From NCBI RefSeq assembly GCF_003663945.1, contig NZ_RCCH01000001.1, forward strand, positions 372,001 to 436,000: 64,000 nt of DNA. The letters are read 5' to 3'. The DNA is from Lacinutrix venerupis. GTDB lineage: Bacteria; Bacteroidota; Bacteroidia; Flavobacteriales; Flavobacteriaceae. Shown one piece after another: positions 21,311 to 32,390 of the stretch; the first letter of the stretch is position 1, and the number at the start of each line of letters is the position of its first letter. The notes beneath the pieces were generated by a model that had not been told where the DNA came from, did no database searches, and saw nothing but the letters and a program-made list of their open reading frames with translations. A program made the position numbers and the translations under genes.

Positions 21311-21353
21311 TGTTTAACTTTATTAAAAAACAATTAAACATTTTGTATCTTTA
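21311..21353 (+). promoter_or_regulatory. Dyad operator plus -7 element of light island unit 1
   Basis: TGTTTAACTT (21311-21320), a 10-base spacer and CAATTAAACA (21331-21340) form a dyad (8 of 10 positions match a perfect inverted repeat). TTTTG and then the -7 element TATCTTTA (21346-21353) follow. No TTG occurs at the -33 position. The same arrangement recurs at 28437-28479. The operator would control the TetR-like gene starting at 21374, and it rules out the ATG at 21353, which lies in the -7 box. Confidence 0.65.
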
Positions 21354-21373
21354 TGGATATTAAACATAATCTC

Positions 21374-22030
21374 ATGGCGAAAAAGAAAAATTTAACTAAA
21401 AACAACATAATAACATTTTATATGGATTATGTTTTAGAGCATGGTCAAAACCCAAAATCTGTATATAGTTTTGCAAAACATAATAATTTTGAAGAATCTA
21501 AATTTTATGAGTTTTTTGGATCGTTTGAAAATATAGAAAAACATATATTTAAAGTGTTTCATGATAACACTATTTCTGCCTTACATAAAAGTAACGAGTA
21601 TTCTAGCTTTCAGTCTAGAGAAAAATTATTAAGCTATTATTTTACATTTTTTGAAAACCTAACCGCCAACAGAAGCTATGTTGTTTATACATTAAATAAA
21701 CATAAAAACAGCTTAAAATCTTTTAAAGCATTAACAGTATTAAAATCTAGTTTCACACAGTATATTAATGATTTGGATATTGAATTATTAGATGTAAAGG
21801 AAGAAAAATTAAATAAAATTCAAAATAAAGGACTTACAGAATCTGCATGGCTACAACTATTATTAACAATAAAATTTTGGTTAGAAGATACTTCTGCAAG
21901 TTTTGAAAAAACAGATGTTTTTATAGAAAAATCTGTTAACACAAGCTTCGATGTTTTAAACATTGCTCCTTTAAAAAGCTTGATAGATTTCGGGAAATTT
22001 ATTTTCAAAGAAAAAGTAAAAATGAATTAA
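21374..22030 (+). CDS. TetR/AcrR-like transcriptional regulator
   Basis: A 218-residue protein starting MAKKKNLTKNN. The N-terminal 60 residues read as a TetR-type DNA-binding domain with HTH-like KSVYSFAKHNNFEESKFYEFFGSF split over helices 2-3. The rest is a helical C-terminal domain of unknown ligand. An ATG 21 bases earlier falls inside the -7 element, so the ATG at 21374 is preferred. It is the first gene of the photoprotection island, and the dyad operator before it is also found before the second transcription unit, which makes it the best local candidate for the regulator. It has no recognisable photoreceptor domain. Confidence 0.75.
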   Translation: MAKKKNLTKNNIITFYMDYVLEHGQNPKSVYSFAKHNNFEESKFYEFFGSFENIEKHIFKVFHDNTISALHKSNEYSSFQSREKLLSYYFTFFENLTANRSYVVYTLNKHKNSLKSFKALTVLKSSFTQYINDLDIELLDVKEEKLNKIQNKGLTESAWLQLLLTIKFWLEDTSASFEKTDVFIEKSVNTSFDVLNIAPLKSLIDFGKFIFKEKVKMN

Positions 22031-22083
22031 TAAAATTTTTGAGATTAAGAAATTTCTCTCATTCATTATAAATATAAAACATA

Positions 22084-23394
22084 TTGAAAACAATAGATAG
22101 CATACCAACTTCTAAAATCCAACGAGCTTCAAAACTTGTTCAAACTGGTGCTAAAGTGGGAGTTAATTACCTAAAATACTACGGAGATAAATTAACAAAA
22201 ACCGAAGACGAAGCTAAAACACGTTTAAACAATAATAACGCTGAAGATATTTACGATGGTTTAAAAAAGCTAAAAGGAAGTGCATTAAAAGTGGCGCAAA
22301 TGTTAAGTATGGAAAAGAGTATTTTACCTCAAGCTTATGTAGAAAAATTCTCTCTTGCGCAATTTTCTGTACCACCACTTTCTGCTCCTTTAGTTGCTAA
22401 AACTTTTAAAAAATATTTTGGCAAATTACCTAATGAAATCTACGACACCTTTAATTTAACTTCTGTAAATGCTGCCAGTATTGGGCAAGTGCATGTAGCA
22501 GAAAAAAATGGGAAGAAACTTGCTGTGAAAATTCAATACCCAGGTGTCGCAGATAGCATTTCTACAGATTTAGCATTAGTTAAACCTATTGCTATACAAA
22601 TGTTTAACATTAAAGGAAAAGATAGCGACAAATACTTTAAAGAAGTAGAAAATAAACTTATTGAAGAAACTAACTATATTCTTGAAGTGAAACAGAGTAA
22701 AGAAATAGTTAGTGCATGTAAGCATATTCCTAACCTTAAATTTCCAAAATATTATGAAGATTTATCGTCCGAAAGAATTATAACTATGGATTGGATGGAA
22801 GGCGAACATTTAAGTCAATTTACTGCTTATAATAAAGACCAAAACAAAGCAAACAAATTGGGTCAAGCACTTTGGGATTTCTATATGTATCAAATGCATA
22901 AACTAAAAAAAGTACATGCCGACCCACATCCTGGAAATTTTTTAATTTCTGAAAAAGGAGAATTAATAGCCTTAGATTTTGGTTGTATGAAAACAGTACC
23001 AGACGAATTTTATATACCATACTTTGAATTAGCAAAAAAAGATAGCATTAATAATCCTAACATTTTTAAAGAAAAATTATTTGCTTTAGAAATTTTAAAA
23101 GAAGATGATTCGCCAGAAGAGTTAGATTTCTTTTCAAAAATGTTTCATGAAATGTTGAGCCTTTTTACACAACCTTTTCATGTAGAAACATTTAATTTTT
23201 CTGATGAAAAATTCTTTGGTAAAATTACAGAATTAGGTCAAAAATATAGTAAAAACACAGAGTTACGCAAAATGAATGGCAATAGAGGCTCCAAACATTT
23301 TATATATATAAATAGAACCTTTTTCGGGCTTTATAATTTAATGTTCGATTTAAAAGCACAAAATATAAAAATTAATAATTTTAAAAATTTATAG
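22084..23394 (+). CDS. ABC1/UbiB/AarF-family atypical kinase
   Basis: A 436-residue protein of the ADCK/UbiB family, whose members have a protein-kinase fold and support isoprenoid-quinone or lipid metabolism. Visible motifs are KVAQ at 69-72 (family KxGQ with Ala for Gly), ASIGQVHVAE at 131-140, the ATP lysine Lys149 in LAVKIQYPG, HADPHPGNF near 280 and LDFGCMK near 300. No C-terminal membrane helix is evident. The start is TTG 22084 (MKTIDSIPTSKI), matching flavobacterial homologues. It is the second gene in the island, and its stop touches the flavin reductase ATG. Confidence 0.9.
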   Translation: MKTIDSIPTSKIQRASKLVQTGAKVGVNYLKYYGDKLTKTEDEAKTRLNNNNAEDIYDGLKKLKGSALKVAQMLSMEKSILPQAYVEKFSLAQFSVPPLSAPLVAKTFKKYFGKLPNEIYDTFNLTSVNAASIGQVHVAEKNGKKLAVKIQYPGVADSISTDLALVKPIAIQMFNIKGKDSDKYFKEVENKLIEETNYILEVKQSKEIVSACKHIPNLKFPKYYEDLSSERIITMDWMEGEHLSQFTAYNKDQNKANKLGQALWDFYMYQMHKLKKVHADPHPGNFLISEKGELIALDFGCMKTVPDEFYIPYFELAKKDSINNPNIFKEKLFALEILKEDDSPEELDFFSKMFHEMLSLFTQPFHVETFNFSDEKFFGKITELGQKYSKNTELRKMNGNRGSKHFIYINRTFFGLYNLMFDLKAQNIKINNFKNL

Positions 23395-24009
23395 ATGACC
23401 TATTTTAGCTTAAAAGACATTAATAACCTTGAGCACCTTTATAAAATAAACTTAATAAATAGCTGTTCTGGTTATAAATCTGCTAACCTAATAGGTACAA
23501 AATCTAGTTCTGGTATAGAAAATGTGGCCATATTTAGCTCAATTACACATGTAGGTTCTAGTCCTCCAATTCTAGGCTTTTTTTGTAGACCTACAACCGT
23601 AACTAGAAATACTTATGATAATATAAAAAACACAGGAGTTTATACAATTAATCATATCCATAAATCTAATTTTAAAGATGCACATCACACATCTGCAAAA
23701 TATAATTCTAGTATATCTGAATTCGATAAAACATCTTTAAAAGCAGAATATAAAGCAAATTTTCATGCGCCTTTTGTAAAGCATTCACCAGTTCAAATAG
23801 CAATGAAATTTATTAACGAATATCCTATTAAAGAAAATGGAACTATTTTAATTCTAGGTGAAATTCAAGGCTTATATATTAATAACTCTTTAATTACAGA
23901 AGATGGTTTCGTAAACCTATCTAAAGCTAATATTGCAACAATAAATAGCTTAGATGGTTATGCTTTTCCTAAATTAGAAGAAAGATTAGCATATCAAAGA
24001 CCAAAATAA
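23395..24009 (+). CDS. Flavin reductase family protein (FMN-binding split barrel)
   Basis: A 204-residue protein with the split-barrel flavin reductase core: NLIGTKSSSGIENVAIFSS near residues 30-48 and PPILGFFCRPTTVTRNTYDN near 60-80 form the FMN phosphate-binding region. Such proteins reduce FMN or FAD with NAD(P)H or use bound flavin in their own reactions. The ATG directly follows the kinase stop codon. In a cluster with three flavoenzymes of the photolyase family, supplying reduced flavin is plausible but not shown by the sequence. Confidence 0.85.
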   Translation: MTYFSLKDINNLEHLYKINLINSCSGYKSANLIGTKSSSGIENVAIFSSITHVGSSPPILGFFCRPTTVTRNTYDNIKNTGVYTINHIHKSNFKDAHHTSAKYNSSISEFDKTSLKAEYKANFHAPFVKHSPVQIAMKFINEYPIKENGTILILGEIQGLYINNSLITEDGFVNLSKANIATINSLDGYAFPKLEERLAYQRPK

Positions 24010-24015
24010 AACACT

Positions 24016-25440
24016 ATGAAAATACTTGTTACAGGTGCAACAGGCTATATAGGCAAACGTATTATTCCGTTACTTATAGAACAAGGCCATACAGTGGTTT
24101 GCGCTGTAAGAGGAAAATTACGAACAGAAAAAAAATATAGTGATGAGCAAAATGTAGAAGTAGTTGAAGTCGATTTTTTAAAAAAAGAAACACTTAAAAA
24201 TATACCAAAAGATATAGACGCTGCTTATTACTTAATACATTCAATGTCCAATTCTATTTCTAGTTTTCAACAAATGGAAAATGACTGTGCTATAAATTTT
24301 AAGCAAATTATAGAGCAAACTAACTGCAAACAAGTTATTTATTTAAGCGGTATCACTAACGATTTAAAACTATCTAAACATTTATTATCTAGAAAAAATG
24401 TAGAAAACATCTTAGCTTCACCAACATATGGTTTAACAGTTTTTAAAGCTGGAATTATTGTAGGTTCAGGAAGTTCTTCATTCGAAATTATTAGAGATTT
24501 AGTAGAAAAATTACCTATTATGGTAGCTCCTAAATGGCTTAACACAAAAACTCAACCTATTGCTATTAGAGATGTACTAGCATTTTTAACACGTAGTTTA
24601 GGAGATAAGAGACTTTATAACACAACACACGATATTTTTGGCCCAGAAATTTTAAATTACAAACAACTTCTACTAAAATTTGCTAAGTCCAGAGGTTTAA
24701 AAAGATATATAATTACAGTACCTATAATGACTCCAAAACTATCAAGTTATTGGTTATATTTTGTTACATCAACATCTTATAAATTGGCTAGAACCTTGGT
24801 AAATAGTATGGGAGTAGAAATAATTGGGCATCCAAGTAATATTAACCAAATGCTTGATGTTAATCCTATTAATTATGATGAAGCAGTACAATTAGCATTC
24901 GAAAAAATTAAACAAAATAGTATTATTTCTAGCTGGAAAGACTCTTACGCCAGCAGTAGAATAAAAAAAAGAATTTCGGCAAAATATATTAATGTTCCAA
25001 AACATGGCTGTTTTAAAGATATTAAAGAAAGGTCTGTTTTAAATGAAGAACGAACTTTTGCGAAAATTTGTGCCATAGGTGGAGAAAATGGATGGTATTA
25101 TGGCACCTATTTATGGAAAATTAGAGGATTTATAGATAAACTCTTTGGAGGTATTGGTTTAAGACGCGGACGCACAAATGTTAATACAATAGAAACAGGT
25201 GATGCTTTAGATTTTTGGCGCGTATTATTAGCAGATCAAGAAAATAAGCGTCTGCTTTTATTTGCAGAAATGAAATTACCTGGAGAAGCTTGGTTAGAAT
25301 TTAGAGTTGCAAAAGGTAAAGTATACCAACGCGCAATATTTAGACCAAGAGGATTAGCAGGAAGGCTATATTGGTATAGTGTTTTACCGTTTCACGGCTT
25401 TATTTTTAAAGGCATGATAAATAAACTTGCTAATGCCTAA
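24016..25440 (+). CDS. SDR-type NAD(P)-binding protein with C-terminal DUF2867
   Basis: A 474-residue fusion. The N-terminal NAD(P)-binding Rossmann domain starts [10 protein letters not shown] (7-16) and resembles atypical SDRs of the NmrA/NDUFA9 class (about 1-300). The C-terminal DUF2867 region (about 320-470) contains [17 protein letters not shown] and [10 protein letters not shown]. Such fusions repeatedly occur beside cryptochrome/photolyase genes in proteobacteria and Bacteroidetes. Substrate unknown. The DUF2256 gene begins inside its last codons (ATG 25433), so the two are probably coupled. Confidence 0.88.
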
Positions 25441-25585
25441 AGGAGTTAAAAAACAAAATCTTCCAACCAAAATTTGCTTAACCTGCCTCCTACCTTTTAC
25501 TTGGAGAAAAAAATGGGAAAACAATTGGAACAATATAAAATATTGCAGTAAAAAATGTCGTCAAACAAAAACAAAACCAGTTTAG
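25433..25585 (+). CDS. DUF2256 zinc-ribbon-like protein (50 aa)
   Basis: A short protein, [18 protein letters not shown]..., with paired cysteines Cys15-x2-Cys18 and Cys38-x3-Cys42 (YCSKKCRQ), typical of DUF2256 and likely to bind zinc. It overlaps the SDR gene by 8 bases and the DASH cryptochrome by 31 bases. DUF2256 proteins are a well-known companion of photolyase/cryptochrome genes, though their role is unknown. The ORF is too short for most gene callers' default length cut-offs but is convincing by family match and cysteine spacing. Confidence 0.85.
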
Positions 25586-26871
25586 TCTGGTTTAGAAACG
25601 ATTTACGAATACAAGACAATACTACACTTTCTAAAGCTATACTAGAAAATAATACTGTTATTGCAATTTATTGTTTTGATAAAAGACAGTTTAAAAAAGA
25701 TAGTTTCGGATTTAAAAAAACAGAAAAATATAGAGCTAAATTTTTAATTGAAACTGTTCAAGATTTAAAAACACAATTACAAAAATTAAATATTCCGCTA
25801 TACGTCTATTTTGATAATACAGAATTATGCATCGCTAAATTAGAAAAGTGTTTTAATTTCGACGCCTTATACCTTCAAAAAGAGTGGACAAGTGAAGAAA
25901 ATAATATACTAGATAAAGTAAAAAATATTTGGCACAAAAACTTCCCTATTTACGAGCTTTACAATCAATTTTTATATCATCCAGAAGATGTAATTTTTGA
26001 ACTTGATAAACTTCCCAAAATATTTACAGAATTTAGAAAAAACGTCGAAAAACATTCTAAAATTAGAACTACAAAAAGTATTTATAATACTAATTTCAAT
26101 AAAGATTTAATTGAAAATAACAAAACAAAAATACCAACACTTAAAGAATTAGGTTTTGCAAATTTTACACCACATCCTAATTCTGCTTTTCCTTTTAAAG
26201 GTGGAGAAAAAGAAGCATTAAAGAGATTAAATAATTATTTTTTTAAAACTAAAAAACTATGCATTTATAAGAAAACTAGAAATGGATTAATTGGTACAAA
26301 TTTTAGCTCCAAATTTTCACCATGGTTAGCAAACGGAAGTATAAGTGCAAAAACTATTTATTGGAAGGTTAAAGAATTCGAAACACTATATTTTAAAAAC
26401 CAATCTACATACTGGTTAATATTCGAGCTTATTTGGAGAGATTACTTTAAATATGTTTCGATACAACATCAATCTAAAATTTTTAAAATTGGCGGTATTT
26501 TAGAAAAAAAATATAATTGGCACACCAATTTTGAAAAAGTTAATAAATGGGTTAACGGCAAAACTAACCAGCCTTTTGTAAACGCAAATATGATAGAATT
26601 ACAAAAAACTGGCTGGATGAGTAATCGCGGCAGACAAAATGTTGCAAGTTATTTTACAAAAACATTGCAACTGGATTGGCGTATTGGTGCCGCATATTTT
26701 GAATCTTTACTTTTAGACTACGATGTACATAGCAATTATGGCAACTGGATGTATGTTGCTGGTGTTGGTAACGATCCCAGAGACAGAAAATTTAATGTAA
26801 AATTACAAGCAGACCGTTATGATACTAACGGAAATTACCAACGTTTGTGGTTACAAAACACTTTATTTTAA
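25555..26871 (+). CDS. DASH-family cryptochrome/photolyase
   Basis: A 438-residue flavoprotein. The N-terminal photolyase alpha/beta domain starts [14 protein letters not shown], and the C-terminal FAD domain includes [29 protein letters not shown] and [17 protein letters not shown]. The last motif, with the following [14 protein letters not shown], is diagnostic of the DASH subfamily. DASH proteins repair cyclobutane dimers, mainly in single-stranded DNA, and may also signal. The start overlaps DUF2256 by 31 bases, and 6 bases separate its stop from the next photolyase gene. Confidence 0.93.
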
Positions 26872-26877
26872 TTTATT

Positions 26878-28413
26878 TTGAAAACACTAAGACTTATTTT
26901 AGGAGATCAACTTAATAGCAAACATTCGTGGTTTAAAGGAAACCAATCTAATTATGTGTATTGCATGTTCGAGATGCGCCAAGAAACAGATTATGTAAAG
27001 CATCATATTCAAAAAATTATTGGCTTTTTTGCTGCAATGCGTTCTTTCTCTAAAGAGTTAGAAAATAAAAATTGTCAAGTCGTCTATTATACGTTAAACA
27101 ATACTCAAAACACACAAAATCTCACACAAAATATTCAACAAATAATCGATAAACTAAATATTAAAAAATTTGAATATCAATTACCAGATGAATATAGACT
27201 AGATCAACAATTAGCTAATTTTTGCAAAACACTTCCTTTTAACTATCAAGCATTTAACACAGAACATTTTTACACAAATCGTAACGATTTAGCTCTATTT
27301 TTTAAAAATAAAAAACAGTGGTTAATGGAAAGTTTTTATCGAGATATGCGCAAAAAACATAATATACTTATTGTTGCAAACCAACAACCAGAAGGCGGGA
27401 AATGGAATTACGATAAAAGCAATAGAAACAAATGGAATGAAAAAAAAACAATTCCAAAATTTAAATCGTTTCAAAATGATGTTTCAGAAATAATAACATT
27501 AATTAAAAATCAAAATATTAAAACGTTAGGATTTTTTAACTCCACCCATTTCGAATATCCAATAAATAGAAAGCAAGCGTTAGAACAACTAAAATATTTT
27601 TGCGAACATTTATTAATTCATTTTGGTGATTACCAGGATGCAATGCATACAGAAGAAATATACCTCTTCCACTCTCGTCTATCTTTTGCAATGAATTGTA
27701 AAATAATTTCTCCAAAAGCTATAGTTACAACAGTTTTAAATTATTGGAGAAAACATGGAGAAAACATAAACATCTCTCAAGTCGAAGGTTTTATTCGCCA
27801 AATAATTGGTTGGCGTGAATATATGAGAGGCATGTATTGGGCGTTAATGCCAGAATATAAAACTTTAAATTTCTTAGAAAATTCTAATACATTGCCAAAT
27901 TTTTTCTGGACTGGAAAAACAAAAATGAATTGTTTAAAAAATGCAATAAACAACTCTTTAAATAATGGCTACGCGCACCACATACAACGTTTAATGATTA
28001 CTGGAAACTTTGCTTTACTAACACAAATTAATCCAGACGAAGTAGACGCTTGGTATCTAGGAGTTTATGTAGATGCCATAGAATGGGTGCAATTACCAAA
28101 TACTCGTGGTATGAGTCAATTTGCAGATGGAGGAAAAATAGCAACAAAACCATATGTTTCTAGTGGTAGCTACATTAATAAAATGAGTAATTATTGTGAT
28201 GATTGCTATTACAATAAAAAAGAAAAAATTGGTGATAAAGCTTGTCCTTTTAATAGTTTGTATTGGAATTTTCTAGATGATAAGCGCGAGCAATTAAGCA
28301 ATAATTTTAGAATGAAAATGATGTATAGCTTATTAAATAAAATTCAACCCGAAGATTTACATAAAATTAAAACCAGAGCTTATAACATTATTAAAAATCC
28401 AGATAATTATTAA
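26878..28413 (+). CDS. Iron-sulfur bacterial cryptochrome/photolyase (PhrB/CryB type)
   Basis: A 511-residue protein of the FeS-BCP subfamily, the (6-4) photolyase type known from Agrobacterium PhrB. It begins LRLILGDQLNSKHSWF, the usual opening of this group. The four cysteines expected to hold a 4Fe-4S cluster are at 352 (KMNCLKN), 440 and 443 (YCDDCY) and 456 (KACPFN). The FAD region has FADGGKIATKPYVSSGSYI. Members carry a lumazine antenna. The start is TTG 26878, supported by homologue starts (MKTLRLILGDQ). It is the last gene of island unit 1. Confidence 0.93.
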   Translation: MKTLRLILGDQLNSKHSWFKGNQSNYVYCMFEMRQETDYVKHHIQKIIGFFAAMRSFSKELENKNCQVVYYTLNNTQNTQNLTQNIQQIIDKLNIKKFEYQLPDEYRLDQQLANFCKTLPFNYQAFNTEHFYTNRNDLALFFKNKKQWLMESFYRDMRKKHNILIVANQQPEGGKWNYDKSNRNKWNEKKTIPKFKSFQNDVSEIITLIKNQNIKTLGFFNSTHFEYPINRKQALEQLKYFCEHLLIHFGDYQDAMHTEEIYLFHSRLSFAMNCKIISPKAIVTTVLNYWRKHGENINISQVEGFIRQIIGWREYMRGMYWALMPEYKTLNFLENSNTLPNFFWTGKTKMNCLKNAINNSLNNGYAHHIQRLMITGNFALLTQINPDEVDAWYLGVYVDAIEWVQLPNTRGMSQFADGGKIATKPYVSSGSYINKMSNYCDDCYYNKKEKIGDKACPFNSLYWNFLDDKREQLSNNFRMKMMYSLLNKIQPEDLHKIKTRAYNIIKNPDNY

Positions 28414-28436
28414 ATAAAAATTAATATGTTAATTTT

Positions 28437-28479
28437 TGTTTAACTTAATCAATTTAAAGTTAAACATTTTGTAAATTTG
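28437..28479 (+). promoter_or_regulatory. Perfect dyad operator plus -7 element of light island unit 2
   Basis: TGTTTAACTT (28437-28446) and its exact reverse complement AAGTTAAACA (28457-28466) are separated by 10 bases. TTTTG and the exact -7 box TAAATTTG (28472-28479) follow. The -33 TTG is missing, as in the copy at 21311-21353. Spacing from dyad to -7 box is identical in both. A TTG at 28477 that would extend the next gene lies inside the -7 box, so translation must begin at 28501. Confidence 0.7.
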
Positions 28480-28500: not shown

Positions 28501-28926
28501 ATGATTTTTAATACTACTTACATTAATAAACAGAATATAGATTTAATAAATGATATAGTAGGAAAACCATTTAATTTTTTACAAGCCTTTAAACTTAAAG
28601 GTATTGGCTCTAAACGGATGATTATTGAAAATGTAAGCCCTAATTTTAAGTACCTTTTAAATACAGTTGCAGACGCAAATTATGCTAATATAGAGCTAAG
28701 ACCACATGGTATTTTAATCCATATTATTAAAGGCTTACAAAATTTTACGTGGGCAATCCCTTATTACCAATTAGTTATATATAAAGTTAATGGCTCTAGT
28801 ATTCACGCGCAAGGCAGGTTTATTCACTTTAAAAACAACAAAACATTAAAGGAAAACAAAAAGTTTTTTAATAAACTTTTAAACGAAAAAATAAAATTTG
28901 ATGAAAAATATAATTTCCAAACCTAG
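28501..28926 (+). CDS. Conserved hypothetical protein of photolyase clusters (141 aa)
   Basis: A 141-residue protein beginning MIFNTTYINKQN, with conserved-looking KLKGIGSKRMIIENVSP and PHGILIHIIKGLQNFTWAIP segments. No signal peptide, membrane helix or known domain is seen. The N-terminal start is fixed by the promoter just upstream. I recall near-identical flavobacterial proteins of unknown function, but can give no function. It is the first gene of the second island unit and overlaps the DUF2805 gene by 26 bases. Confidence 0.7.
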   Translation: MIFNTTYINKQNIDLINDIVGKPFNFLQAFKLKGIGSKRMIIENVSPNFKYLLNTVADANYANIELRPHGILIHIIKGLQNFTWAIPYYQLVIYKVNGSSIHAQGRFIHFKNNKTLKENKKFFNKLLNEKIKFDEKYNFQT

Positions 28927-29206
28927 TAATCCAAAAAACTTTACTGTCGAGGATATAGATCGTATTATAGAAATGGCTTGGGAAGATAGAACTCCTTTTG
29001 ATGCTATAACTTTTCAATTTAATATAAAAGAACAAGACATAATAAAGCTTATGCGAAAAGAAATGAAAGCAAATAGTTTTAAATTATGGCGAGCAAGAGT
29101 TCAAGGTAGAAAGACAAAGCATCTAAAAAACAGAAATTTTGAAGAAGGTCGTTTTAAATGTTCTAGACAAAAGCAAATTACGCACAATAAAATAAGTAAG
29201 AGGTAA
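28901..29206 (+). CDS. DUF2805 / TIGR03643 family protein
   Basis: A 101-residue protein. The core DIDRIIEMAWEDRTPFDAI and MRKEMKANSFKLWRARVQGR match DUF2805, a short family frequently found in photolyase or cryptochrome neighbourhoods. The C-terminal tail is strongly basic. The fold may include a helix-turn-helix (EQDIIKLMRKEM). ATG 28901 is chosen over the TTG one codon earlier. It overlaps the end of the preceding hypothetical gene in another frame. Confidence 0.8.
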   Translation: MKNIISKPSNPKNFTVEDIDRIIEMAWEDRTPFDAITFQFNIKEQDIIKLMRKEMKANSFKLWRARVQGRKTKHLKNRNFEEGRFKCSRQKQITHNKISKR

Positions 29207-29225
29207 AATTTTAAAACCACTAAAA

Positions 29226-29909
29226 ATGAAAAACATTGTAATAATTGGAGGAAGTAAAGGTATTGGAAATGCAATTGTGAAAAATTTAATTTCCGAAAAT
29301 AAAATTTATAACATAAGTAGAACTTCACCAGAACAAACGCACCAAAACCTAACACATTTTAATTGCGATATTTTAAATGATGATTTACCAGAAATTGAAG
29401 CAATAGACACTTTAATATACTGTCCAGGAAGTATTAATTTAAAACCAATTTCCAGACTATCCTTAGAAAATTTTAGAGAGGATTTCGAAATTAATGTTAT
29501 TGGTGCCGTAAAAACAATTCAGCATTTTTTACCAAAATTAAAAAACGGTAATCAACCATCTATACTACTCTTTAGTACAGTTGCATCAAAATTAGGAATG
29601 CCTTTTCATGCAAGTGTAGCAGCTGCAAAGTCAGCAATAGAAGGTTTAACAAAATCTTTAGGTGCAGAATTAGCTCCAACAATACGTGTAAATGCTATTG
29701 CTCCTACGGTTACAGACACAACATTAGCATCAAAACTATTACGTAACGATAAAATAGTAGAAAATATTAAAGAGCGTCATCCTTTAAAAAAGTTTTTAAA
29801 TCCTGAAGAAGTAGCCGATATGGCTTCGTTTTTAACATCTAGTAAAGCAGCTTCTATTTCTGGTCAAATTTTTAAAATGGATTGTGGCATTGTTAGTTTT
29901 AAAATTTAA
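29226..29909 (+). CDS. SDR-fold protein lacking the catalytic tyrosine
   Basis: A 227-residue classical-size short-chain dehydrogenase/reductase with the cofactor motif GGSKGIGNAI (8-17) and Ser117 in LLFSTVAS. The YxxxK active site is altered: Lys135 is present (VAAAKSAIEG), but residue 131, where Tyr is expected, is Val. The fold is otherwise complete. It may be a non-catalytic NAD(P)-binding protein or use another residue. Located in the middle of island unit 2, directly followed by the Lacal_2735 protein. Confidence 0.82.
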   Translation: MKNIVIIGGSKGIGNAIVKNLISENKIYNISRTSPEQTHQNLTHFNCDILNDDLPEIEAIDTLIYCPGSINLKPISRLSLENFREDFEINVIGAVKTIQHFLPKLKNGNQPSILLFSTVASKLGMPFHASVAAAKSAIEGLTKSLGAELAPTIRVNAIAPTVTDTTLASKLLRNDKIVENIKERHPLKKFLNPEEVADMASFLTSSKAASISGQIFKMDCGIVSFKI

Positions 29910-29914
29910 GAATT

Positions 29915-30091
29915 ATGTTTTCATTATTTAAAAAGAAAAGCCCAGTTGAAAAACTTCAAAAAAAATACGAAAATTTAATGCGTGAATCTCACAAATTATC
30001 TACATCAAATAGAAAAGCTAGCGATGCTAAATTTGCTGAAGCAGAAATAATTAATAACCAAATTCAACAATTAATAGCAAACAAATTATGA
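29915..30091 (+). CDS. Lacal_2735-type small protein (58 aa)
   Basis: A 58-residue, mostly helical, charged protein starting MFSLFKKKSPVEKLQKKYE and containing KLSTSNRKASDAKFAEAE. This matches the short flavobacterial family I know as Lacal_2735 (also called DUF6435). Function unknown. A coiled coil is likely across residues 10-55. It starts 5 bases after the SDR stop, and its stop overlaps the TspO start by 4 bases (ATGA). Confidence 0.75.
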   Translation: MFSLFKKKSPVEKLQKKYENLMRESHKLSTSNRKASDAKFAEAEIINNQIQQLIANKL

Positions 30092-30549
30092 AAAAACTTA
30101 AATACATTTTGTTGTTTATAATTATAAATTTTGCTAGTTTATACATTGGTAATTTATTAATGGATAATGGCCCACAAACAAGTTGGTATTTAAGTTTAGA
30201 AAAGGCACCTTGGACACCGCCTGGTTGGGTATTTGGAGTCGCTTGGACATTAATAATGCTATGTTTTTCCTTCTATTTAGCTTCTTTATTTTTAAAAGAG
30301 AATAGTTTAAAATTAAAATTAGCATTTACGCTACAAGTGTTTTTAAATGTAATATGGAATTTTGTGTTTTTTAATCAGCATTTAGTGGTAATAGGTTTAA
30401 TAGTAATCTCAGCCTTAACAGTTGTTATTTTTACTTTTTTCTTCACCAATTTTAAAAGCATGAAAAACAAAAGTTTTTTACTTCTACCTTATATGGTTTG
30501 GCTATTAATTGCAACCTCACTAAACGCTTTTATTTTATTAAATAATTAA
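30088..30549 (+). CDS. tspO: TspO/MBR-family membrane protein
   Basis: A 153-residue five-helix membrane protein of the translocator/benzodiazepine receptor family. The Trp- and Pro-rich loop KAPWTPPGWVFGVAWTLIM (about residues 39-57) and the later VIWNFVFF are the family hallmarks. TspO binds porphyrins; in Rhodobacter it is an oxygen/light-dependent regulator and in other bacteria it aids photo-oxidative porphyrin breakdown. Its position among photolyases fits a response to light and reactive oxygen. The start overlaps the preceding stop by 4 bases. Confidence 0.9.
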   Translation: MKKLKYILLFIIINFASLYIGNLLMDNGPQTSWYLSLEKAPWTPPGWVFGVAWTLIMLCFSFYLASLFLKENSLKLKLAFTLQVFLNVIWNFVFFNQHLVVIGLIVISALTVVIFTFFFTNFKSMKNKSFLLLPYMVWLLIATSLNAFILLNN

Positions 30550-30550
30550 T

Positions 30551-31012
30551 ATGAAAATATATAGACTACATAAAAAACAAAATTTACCAATAACTAAAGA
30601 GCAAGCTTGGGAGTTTTTGTCAACTCCAGAAAACTTAAAAACCATAACTCCAGATTATATGGGATTTAATATCTTATCTGGAGCAGATAGACCAATGTAT
30701 GCAGGACAAATTATTCAATACATTGTAACTCCTGTTTTAGGCATTAAAACAAAATGGGTAACAGAAATTACTCACGTTGTTGATGGTGAATATTTTGTAG
30801 ACGAACAGCGCTTTGGTCCTTATGCATTATGGCATCATAAACATTTTATTAAAGAAATTAAAGGCGGTGTAGAAATGGAAGATATTATAGATTATAAAAT
30901 TCCAATGGGAATTTTTGGTCAATTAGCACATCCTATTTTGGTAAAACCTAAATTAGAAGAAATATTTAATTACAGAAAAGAGAAGTTAGAAACGCTCTTT
31001 GGAAAATATTAA
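30551..31012 (+). CDS. SRPBCC (START/Bet v1-like) family protein
   Basis: A 153-residue soluble protein of the SRPBCC superfamily, recognised by AWEFLSTPENLKTITPDYMGF near the N-terminus and by YALWHHKHFIKEIKGGVEMED and DYKIPMG in the second half. It has a hydrophobic ligand pocket in this fold; no specific ligand can be assigned. It begins 1 base after the TspO stop and ends 3 bases before the photolyase gene. SRPBCC proteins occur often in this type of cluster. Confidence 0.8.
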   Translation: MKIYRLHKKQNLPITKEQAWEFLSTPENLKTITPDYMGFNILSGADRPMYAGQIIQYIVTPVLGIKTKWVTEITHVVDGEYFVDEQRFGPYALWHHKHFIKEIKGGVEMEDIIDYKIPMGIFGQLAHPILVKPKLEEIFNYRKEKLETLFGKY

Positions 31013-31015
31013 ACT

Positions 31016-32320
31016 ATGAGTAAAACTGTAAACATTTTTTGGTTTCGTCGTGACTTACGATTGGACGATAATATTGGTTTTTTTGAAGCATTAAATGGCA
31101 AATATCCAGTATTGCCAATTTTTATTTTTGATTCTGAAATTTTAGAAGAATTACCAAAAAATGACGCTCGCGTTAGCTTTATTTTTGAAACACTTCAAAA
31201 CATGCGTAAAACATTACAAGATGAAAACAATAGTAGTTTAGCCATGTTTTATGGTAAACCAGTAGAAGTTTATAAAGCTTTAATTAAAAATTATAATATT
31301 AATACCGTTTACACCAATCATGATTACGAGCCTTATGCGAAAGAAAGAGATAAAGAGATACAATCGCTCTTAGAAAAAAATGATATAAGTTTTAAAACGT
31401 ATAAAGATCAAGTAATTTTTGAGAAAGATGAAGTTGTAAAAGACGATGGTAAACCTTATGTCGTTTACACGCCTTATATGAAAAAATGGAAAGCTAAATT
31501 TAAAGACTACAATTTAAAAATTTACTACACCAATTCTCATTTAGATAATGTAATTGAAAATACAAGACTTCCTAATTTAAGTCTAAGCGATATAGGTTTT
31601 ACAAAATCAAGCCAAGAAGTTAGAGAATATTCAGTTACACCAACAGTAATTCAAGACTATGAAGCTACCCGAAATTATCCTGCAAAAGATACCACATCGC
31701 GTTTAGGACCACATTTAAGATTTGGTACTGTAAGCGTAAGAAAAATGATAAAAAAAGCAACTGCAGAAAAAAACGAAATTTTCTGGCAAGAACTTATTTG
31801 GAGAGAGTTTTTTATGCAAATATTATGGCACTTTCCAAACACACATAAAGATGCTTTTAAAGCAAAGTATGATAATATTAAATGGAGAAATAATGACAAA
31901 GAATTTAAAGCCTGGTGCGAAGGAAAAACTGGTTATCCCTTAGTTGATGCTGGTATGCGACAATTAAATAAAACTGGTTTTATGCACAATCGCGTACGCA
32001 TGCTTGTTGGTAGTTTTTTATGCAAACATTTACTTATCGATTGGAGAAAAGGCGAAGCTTATTTTGCAGAAAAACTGCACGATTACGATATGGCTAGTAA
32101 TGTTGGTAATTGGCAATGGGTAGCAGGATCTGGTGTAGATGCATCTCCTTATTTTAGAATATTTAATCCAACAACACAAATAGATAAATTTGATAAAGAC
32201 AGAAAATATATAAAAAAATGGGTTAAAGAATTTGAAACAGATAAGTATCCAGATAAAATTGTAGACCATAAAGAAGCTAGAGAACGTTGTTTAAAAGTAT
32301 ATAAAGAGGCTGTAGCATAA
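31016..32320 (+). CDS. phr: Class I deoxyribodipyrimidine photolyase/cryptochrome
   Basis: A 434-residue photolyase. The antenna domain starts IFWFRRDLRLDDNI. The FAD domain has TSRLGPHLRFGTVS, FWQELIWREFFMQI, GYPLVDAGMRQL, MHNRVRMLVGSFL and ASNVGNWQWVAGSG, followed by DASPYFRIFNP. These are standard for class I CPD photolyases; a cryptochrome role is less likely. It is the last gene of island unit 2 and the third photolyase-family gene within 7 kb. It is separated by 70 bases from the SnoaL-like gene, which has its own -7 element. Confidence 0.93.
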   Translation: MSKTVNIFWFRRDLRLDDNIGFFEALNGKYPVLPIFIFDSEILEELPKNDARVSFIFETLQNMRKTLQDENNSSLAMFYGKPVEVYKALIKNYNINTVYTNHDYEPYAKERDKEIQSLLEKNDISFKTYKDQVIFEKDEVVKDDGKPYVVYTPYMKKWKAKFKDYNLKIYYTNSHLDNVIENTRLPNLSLSDIGFTKSSQEVREYSVTPTVIQDYEATRNYPAKDTTSRLGPHLRFGTVSVRKMIKKATAEKNEIFWQELIWREFFMQILWHFPNTHKDAFKAKYDNIKWRNNDKEFKAWCEGKTGYPLVDAGMRQLNKTGFMHNRVRMLVGSFLCKHLLIDWRKGEAYFAEKLHDYDMASNVGNWQWVAGSGVDASPYFRIFNPTTQIDKFDKDRKYIKKWVKEFETDKYPDKIVDHKEARERCLKVYKEAVA

Positions 32321-32366: not shown

Positions 32367-32390
32367 GTTAAACTAAAAAAAACTAATAAA

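What the first reader, a model, noticed from the sequence alone, without database searches (positions are those of the whole stretch)
21311..28479. Two-copy dyad operator linking both halves of a photoprotection island
Seen directly: TGTTTAACTT-N10-AAGTTAAACA (28437-28466, perfect) and TGTTTAACTT-N10-CAATTAAACA (21311-21340, 8 of 10 in the right arm). In both, TTTTG and a -7 box (TAAATTTG, TATCTTTA) follow at the same distance, and ATGTTAATTTT precedes the dyad. Neither has a -33 TTG, which suggests an activator or a special sigma factor. The sites sit before the only two long transcription units of the light island, and I found no third full copy in the window. A GTTAAAC half-site occurs at 32367-32373. 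I know of no description of this operator.
Basis: partly seen in the sequence, partly recalled or inferred. Interest (0 to 1): 0.78.

Follow-up and report, generated by a model that had tools for sequence, protein, structure and literature searches.

The report
Operator of a CarH-like light regulator
Two matching DNA sites in front of a marine bacterium's light-damage repair genes are probably landing sites for a vitamin-B12-type light-sensing repressor coded elsewhere in its genome, and the same sites mark light-related genes in related bacteria.

Summary
In detail: a perfect dyad at 28437-28466 and a second copy with 2 mismatches at 21311-21340. It is a conserved operator. In 63 named flavobacterial loci it stands before the TetR gene in 50 of the 50 where that gene was found, and before the second operon in 55 of 62. 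The gap is 14 bp in 101 of 104 pairs; a -7 box lies at a fixed distance in 99 of 107 sites.

The best candidate is a CarH/LitR-like MerR protein encoded on another contig beside carotenoid genes. Exact dyads occur in 62 of 67 genomes with this gene and 5 of 32 without; for TetR, 44 of 49 and 23 of 50. The arm base TGT[T/A/C]TA changes with the MerR recognition helix: Ile/Val/Ala with T in 51 of 52 genomes, Thr with A in 8 of 9, Lys with C in 2 of 5. The TetR helix shows no such pattern.

Likely mechanism: dark repression by an adenosylcobalamin-loaded regulator, released by light. Binding, cobalamin and light response are inferred. New variant of a known kind.

The parts
21311..21340 (.). operator 1, dyad TGTTTAAC-N14-ATTAAACA before the TetR-ABC1-flavin reductase-DUF2867-DUF2256-DASH cryptochrome-DPRP gene run
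   Evidence: conserved upstream of TetR in 50 of the 50 named loci where TetR was found
21346..21353 (+). -7 box TATCTTTA, 5 nt after the dyad
   Evidence: same offset in 99 of 107 sites
28437..28466 (.). operator 2, perfect dyad TGTTTAAC-N14-GTTAAACA before the second gene run
   Evidence: conserved upstream of the 141-aa gene in 55 of 62 named loci
28472..28479 (+). -7 box TAAATTTG, 5 nt after the dyad
21374..22030 (+). TetR-like protein (TetR_C_23), first gene of run 1. The start listed at 21353 overlaps the -7 box, so the ATG at 21374 is the more likely start (inference)
22084..28413 (+). rest of run 1: ABC1 kinase-like, flavin reductase-like, DUF2867, DUF2256, DASH cryptochrome, DPRP photolyase-related protein
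28501..28926 (+). 141-aa protein without Pfam or NCBIfam family, first gene of run 2
28898..32320 (+). rest of run 2: DUF2805, SDR, TspO, a 153-aa protein without Pfam match, photolyase
32367..32373 (+). isolated GTTAAAC half-site before the SnoaL-like gene; as a full dyad it has 4 mismatches of 16, so its role is unclear

Best explanation
The dyads are operators of a CarH/LitR-like MerR-family regulator encoded elsewhere in the genome (G000:C4, L064:7323-8267) at the head of a carotenoid gene cluster. In the dark the regulator, presumably carrying adenosylcobalamin, binds the two TnnACA half-sites that face each other across the dyad. It thereby covers the region upstream of the -7 box (photolyase operons) or the -7 box itself (crtI, rhodopsin and other promoters in relatives), and RNA polymerase is excluded. 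Light splits the cobalamin, the regulator lets go, and photolyases, carotenoid genes and, in relatives, rhodopsin genes are expressed. Shown by computation: conserved sites, strict spacing, the two promoter positions, the link of sites to the regulator gene, and covariation of arm base and recognition helix. Inferred: binding, cobalamin, light response and the direction of control.
For: Conservation; 14-bp gap in 101 of 104 pairs; -7 box at offset 35 in 137 and at offset 15 in 55 of 219 dyads. The own regulator's best PDB matches are CarH (5c8d, E 9.5e-11) and 3whp, 'probable transcriptional regulator' with the same aligned letters (E 7.9e-11); its best NCBIfam model is CarH. W-x9-EH is kept in 47 of 51 orthologs and ExHxxG in 48 of 51. 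Dyads lie downstream of MerR before crtI, or upstream of MerR, in 30 of 51 loci (counted by hand with a loose pattern and no chance control). MerR presence goes with dyads (62 of 67 vs 5 of 32; TetR 44 of 49 vs 23 of 50). Arm base 4 covaries with the MerR recognition helix, with the changes on separate branches of the MerR tree. All three arm types keep T-nn-ACA, the CarH half-site core given in PMC9304148 (passages).
Against: No binding, expression or light data. CarH operators in PMC9304148 are tandem 11-bp direct repeats; this is an inverted pair. PF02310 (B12-binding) does not match the own MerR even at E 10, only the helical B12-binding_2 part does, and SxT...GG is not clear by eye; class II LitRs keep only that helical part and are thought not to bind B12 (passages), so B12 dependence is open. 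In the own genus the promoter of the regulator gene shows only a half-conserved dyad (own: 3 mismatches). The covariation rests on few events: one Thr clade and one weakly supported Lys clade, with G037 and G019 as contrasts; several helix residues change in the Thr clade. Only 2 of 5 Lys genomes have an exact C-type dyad, one has a T-type, and two Ile genomes have a C-type. Five genomes with MerR lack any exact dyad and five without MerR have one. 7 of 20 rhodopsin genes have no dyad of 3 or fewer mismatches within 350 bp. 39 of 219 dyads have the -7 box at neither position.
Confidence: 0.75

Rival explanations
1. The dyad is the operator of the adjacent TetR-like protein, which represses its own operon and the second one.
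For: TetR is the first gene behind operator 1, and the dyad precedes it in 50 of the 50 named loci where it was found. TetR presence does go with dyads (44 of 49 vs 23 of 50), and G003, with TetR and no MerR found, has two (genome 89% complete). TetR-type regulators often control their own gene (recalled).
Against: 19 of 21 genomes with MerR but no TetR have dyads, 8 of them the TGTATA type; G063 and G076 have TetR but no MerR and no exact dyad. Dyads also sit at MerR-crtI, rhodopsin and fasciclin genes far from TetR. The TetR helix varies within one operator class and does not track arm changes: G052, with TGTCTAA arms, has FEEPKFYEHF, close to FEEAKFYEHF of G046 with TGTTTAA arms (two of the 46 rows were unreadable).
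Confidence: 0.08
2. The same MerR protein binds the dyad but activates the class with the dyad upstream of the -7 box (photolyase operons), standing in for the missing -33 element, while repressing the class with the -7 box inside the dyad.
For: No -33 TTG at 102 of 107 sites of the upstream class and a fixed dyad-to-box distance. Most MerR proteins are activators (introduction passage of PMC9478572).
Against: The relatives with known function (CarH, PmlR2) are repressors whose sites overlap promoter elements (passages). MerR activators act at promoters with a 19-bp spacer, not this layout.
Confidence: 0.2
3. The dyad is an RNA-level element or terminator hairpin, not a protein site.
For: A perfect inverted repeat can pair; operator 2 lies just behind the DPRP gene. 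No fold was computed.
Against: In the main class it lies upstream of the -7 box. The letters themselves are nearly invariant and the gap is 14 in 101 of 104 pairs; in a second class the -7 box lies inside it.
Confidence: 0.02
4. Chance repeat in an A+T-rich genome.
For: At one mismatch the own genome has no excess over the reversed control (9 vs 7).
Against: Two near-perfect copies in one window, 2 exact vs 0 control in the genome, conservation at the same places in dozens of genomes.
Confidence: 0.005

Closest known systems
CarH of Thermus thermophilus, Bacillus megaterium and Myxococcales (B12 photoreceptor repressors)
   Same: MerR-type helix-turn-helix plus helical B12-binding_2 part, W-x9-EH and E/DxHxxG motifs, gene beside carotenoid genes, TnnACA half-sites overlapping the promoter
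   Different: Operator is one inverted pair with a 14-bp gap instead of tandem 11-bp direct repeats; predicted targets include photolyases, rhodopsin and fasciclin genes; far below the NCBIfam CarH cut-off (59 vs 400 bits)
Class II LitR such as PmlR2 of Pseudomonas mendocina
   Same: LitR/CarH family; two separated half-sites (TGTACA-N12-TGTACA); dark repressor of light-induced genes (passages)
   Different: PmlR2 is switched by a short LOV protein. No such partner was found in the own genome with one query, a PAS protein from G046 lacking the LOV cysteine motif, so this is a weak test. Half-sites differ (TGTTTA-N18-TAAACA)
CarA of Myxococcus xanthus
   Same: Inverted repeats were described in its operator (passages)
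   Different: B12-independent, dimeric and freed by the antirepressor CarS; no CarS-like protein was looked for here

Membership tests
LitR/CarH family (regulator) | N-terminal MerR helix-turn-helix | tested here: met
   PF13411 47.9 bits, cut-off 21.6
LitR/CarH family (regulator) | helical B12-binding_2 domain | tested here: met
   PF02607 24.2 bits, cut-off 23; 38.0 bits in the G046 ortholog
CarH (B12-dependent class I) | W-x9-EH motif | tested here: met
   present in the own protein and in 47 of 51 orthologs; four have EN
CarH (B12-dependent class I) | E/DxHxxG with the cobalt-binding His | tested here: met
   own ENEIHELG; 48 of 51 keep ExHxxG and all 51 keep the His
CarH (B12-dependent class I) | Pfam B12-binding domain and full motif incl. 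SxT...GG | tested here: inconclusive
   PF02310 not listed even at E 10; SxT and GG not clear by eye in the translation
CarH equivalog (NCBIfam NF052513) | score at or above the curated cut-off of 400 bits | tested here: not met
   59.2 bits, though the best of the NCBIfam models listed
CarH operator | TnnACA half-site core | tested here: met
   TAAACA, TAGACA and TATACA arms against nnnnTnnACAn in PMC9304148
CarH operator | tandem 11-bp direct repeats | tested here: not met
   single inverted pair, 14-bp gap in 101 of 104 pairs; no search for extra direct repeats in the spacer was made
CarH (B12-dependent class I) | binds adenosylcobalamin and leaves DNA in light | not testable with these tools
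   needs purified protein
TetR operator (neighbour as reader) | dyad tracks the TetR protein in presence and in helix changes | tested here: not met

The most novel reading that the evidence does not exclude
A CarH-like, probably B12-based light repressor governs through this inverted-repeat operator a shared light regulon of Flavobacteriales: photolyases and cryptochromes, carotenoid, isoprenoid and pterin cofactor genes, fasciclins, and the rhodopsin pump. The site is placed at either of two positions 20 bp apart relative to the -7 box. Its specificity has been re-coded at least twice (TGTTTA to TGTATA and to TGTCTA), with the recognition helix and the sites at several targets changing together.
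Probability: 0.6. Interest if true: 0.77.

Novelty: new variant of a known kind. Interest (0 to 1): 0.63.

Why it matters
How marine flavobacteria sense light and switch on repair, pigments and rhodopsin was not found in the listings of the papers searched; one paper on light-induced pigment in a Chryseobacterium calls its light-regulated mechanism unknown (passages). A named regulator, a defined site and a predicted target list make this testable in cultured strains. The natural re-coding of helix and operator is also a usable data set on how MerR proteins read DNA.

Tried and rejected
LitR/CarH was first thought absent because PF02310 hit only three long frames of 708-1143 aa in the own genome; a MerR from a relative then found the own ortholog. 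The first dyad check upstream of TetR ignored strand and gave false misses; it was redone with orientation. The one-mismatch hits in the own genome (L003-L007) are at chance level and were not counted as targets; L003 and L005 lie inside open frames. A PAS protein beside dyads in G046 looked like a LOV partner but lacks the LOV cysteine motif and has no match in the own genome. MliR of Bizionia (PMC9478572; outline, abstract and passages) is a different MerR without effector domain. The seven p141 loci without a dyad within 150 bp (L208, L214-L218, L221, all named Aquimarina) include six with a dyad of 1-2 mismatches about 200-320 bp upstream; L214 has none there. Foldseek of the 141-aa protein model gave only weak PH/FERM-like matches, none at E 0.001 or better.

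Rows dropped before counts: L225 (contig edge) from the p141 test; 13 of 63 named loci in which no TetR was found (some are cut by contig ends) from the TetR test. G017's weak TetR hit was counted as absent, and G035 and G084 (fragment MerR hits) as without MerR. L282 (sub-cut-off rhodopsin hit) was left out, so 20 of 21. In the chance windows true sites were not removed. The 99 genomes include the own one; the 63 named loci and the G genomes overlap in species.

Gene names first read by eye were checked with Pfam.
Full report
Observation. The window holds exactly two dyads of the form TGTTTAACTT-N10-AAGTTAAACA at up to 3 mismatches: 28437-28466 (0) and 21311-21340 (2). Shuffled windows give 0.07 on average, and 1 of 100 reached two. 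The upstream ATGTTAATTTT, the TTTTG and the -7 boxes at equal distance are there. In the whole genome TGTTTAA-N16-TTAAACA is exact only at these two places. They stand before two same-strand gene runs: TetR-like, ABC1, flavin reductase-like, DUF2867, DUF2256, DASH cryptochrome, DPRP; and a 141-aa protein, DUF2805, SDR, TspO, a 153-aa protein without Pfam match, photolyase. The ATG listed at 21353 overlaps the -7 box, so the TetR-like protein more probably starts at 21374 (inference).

Conservation. One scan of named genomes with the 141-aa protein gave 63 loci from Lacinutrix, Olleya, Algibacter, Winogradskyella, Hyunsoonleella, Tamlana, Aquimarina, Bizionia and others. A dyad with at most 3 mismatches of 16 lies within 150 bp upstream of that gene in 55 of 62 (22 perfect), and one with at most 1 mismatch before TetR in 50 of the 50 loci where TetR was found (35 perfect); in 1260 random windows of the same loci 17 reach 3 mismatches or fewer, true sites included. 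With at most 1 mismatch, 101 of 104 arm pairs with gaps of 2 to 30 have a gap of exactly 14. In 107 aligned sites (105 from these loci plus the two own), the -7 box TAnnTTTG (5 of 6 or better) starts 5 nt after the dyad in 99, and a TTG at 17-23 nt upstream of the box is present in only 5.

More targets. In relatives G056 and G046, mainly, dyads also stand at: crtI behind a MerR gene (also in G029 and G031); fasciclin genes, twice as dyad pairs (L043 beside a tRNA methyltransferase gene, and L055); a rhodopsin gene with a beta-carotene dioxygenase gene divergent to it; a GHMP-kinase-domain gene that follows a diphosphomevalonate decarboxylase gene; Porph_ging proteins; a fatty acid desaturase. 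Some dyads lie at genes that were not identified. Over 219 distinct dyads in the loci then fetched, a -7 box on either strand falls at two positions: offset 35 (137) and offset 15, inside the dyad (55); other offsets have 0 to 25, most under 10, apart from 117 at offset 4, which the arm sequence itself produces; 39 dyads have neither. The two positions differ by 20 bp, about two helical turns. In the own genome the fasciclin gene on contig 6 has two weaker dyads (2 and 3 mismatches of 16) 46 bp apart, again beside a tRNA methyltransferase gene; read on the gene's strand, one has TATTTTTG at offset 15 (offset by eye). For rhodopsin genes, 13 of 20 have a dyad of any of the three types with 3 or fewer mismatches within 350 bp, against 33 of 400 random windows that include true sites. 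The own genome has no rhodopsin match.

The regulator. The MerR neighbour of crtI in relatives has one own ortholog at 55% identity. It heads a cluster with a crtI-type oxidase, a phytoene synthase, a 149-aa protein that looks like CrtZ by eye, and a lycopene cyclase. Its best PDB matches are CarH, 5c8d, and 3whp with the same aligned letters. It has MerR_1 and B12-binding_2 domains. W-x9-EH is kept in 47 of 51 orthologs and ExHxxG in 48 of 51; PMC8156234 gives W-x9-EH as capping the adenosyl group in CarH and the His of E/DxHxxG as the lower cobalt ligand in MetH-type domains (passages). Against full membership: PF02310 is not matched and the CarH equivalog cut-off is missed (59 of 400 bits). 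I therefore call it CarH-like.

MerR or TetR. Among 99 genomes (own included), 62 of 67 with a full MerR have an exact dyad of some type, against 5 of 32 without; for TetR 44 of 49 against 23 of 50. Of the five without MerR, G015, G086 and G088 are at most 86% complete, G003 is 89% complete with TetR and two sites, and G060 is 99% complete with one site. With MerR but no TetR, 19 of 21 have dyads; with TetR but no MerR, 1 of 3. Of 51 MerR loci examined, 30 have a dyad downstream of MerR before crtI or upstream of MerR (counted by hand; loose pattern, no chance control).

Covariation. Exact TGTTTAA-, TGTCTAA- and TGTATAA-type dyads were counted in the same 99 genomes. Sorted by the MerR residue between Arg and Trp of the recognition helix: Ile, 46 of 47 have the T-type, none the A-type; Val or Ala, 5 of 5 T-type; Thr, 8 of 9 A-type and 1 of 9 T-type; Lys, 2 of 5 C-type and 1 of 5 T-type; Met, 0 of 1. 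Two C-type hits fall in Ile genomes (G018, G033). On the MerR tree Thr is one clade, Lys one origin with weak support (64/47); G037 with Ile groups with the Lys rows, G019 with Ile is sister to the Thr clade, and both have T-type dyads. G052 (Lys) has, before its TetR gene, a TGTCTAA/TTAGACA dyad with gap 15, seen by eye. In A-type genomes the sites lie upstream of MerR (G090), before a pterin-synthase and GTP cyclohydrolase pair (G090), before a photolyase-type gene (G079) and near rhodopsin genes. The TetR helix shows no such tracking (44 of 46 rows readable). The three arm types keep T-nn-ACA, the CarH core given in PMC9304148 (passages). PMC5045206 reports that in metal-sensing MerR proteins 23 of 32 correlated protein-DNA pairs lie in the recognition helix (passages). 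The number of independent switches is small, and in the Thr clade several helix residues differ, so the reading residue is not proven.

Mechanism. CarH and class II LitR proteins repress in the dark from sites overlapping promoter elements and are released by light, directly through adenosylcobalamin or through a LOV partner (PMC9304148, PMC9758184, passages). The sites here overlap promoters in the same sense, so dark repression is the most likely reading; activation at the photolyase promoters, which lack a -33 TTG, remains open. Cobalamin and light are inferred from motifs and target genes alone.

Range. The exact 16-base dyad was found in 15 of 296 genomes drawn across the phylum: 12 in the own family (own genome included), 3 elsewhere in the class, none outside the class. 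Other arm types were not sought there.

Literature. Searches in the held library listed no paper whose title or abstract start describes this operator or a CarH-type regulon in Flavobacteriales; only passages of six papers were read. The library lacks most subscription papers, and databases such as RegPrecise were not available, so novelty is provisional. On re-check the confidence was lowered from 0.76 to 0.75 because of G003 and the class II LitR possibility.

Noticed in passing
28501-28926: The 141-aa first gene of run 2 has no Pfam or NCBIfam family, is strongly conserved (22 sequences) and is modelled with high confidence (pLDDT 90.5); only weak PH/FERM-like fold matches.
   Followed up: partly
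L064:13842-14513: A CRP/FNR-like regulator (cNMP-binding and Crp helix-turn-helix domains) is encoded close to the own crt cluster; a CRP/FNR protein acts with LitR in Thermus (title in a reference list), so it might be a missing activator.
   Followed up: no
MerR orthologs of G002, G005, G006, G012: Four genomes of the own genus have Asn for the His of the W-x9-EH motif, which could change the light-state cobalamin chemistry.
   Followed up: no
L055:4525-5001: A PAS protein beside a dyad pair in G046 resembles a LOV domain without the reactive cysteine.
   Followed up: partly
21353-21355: The first ATG of the TetR frame lies inside the -7 box; the start is more likely at 21374.
   Followed up: partly
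25555-26871: The first photolyase-like gene scores over the cut-off of the DASH cryptochrome model (485 vs 317 bits).
   Followed up: no
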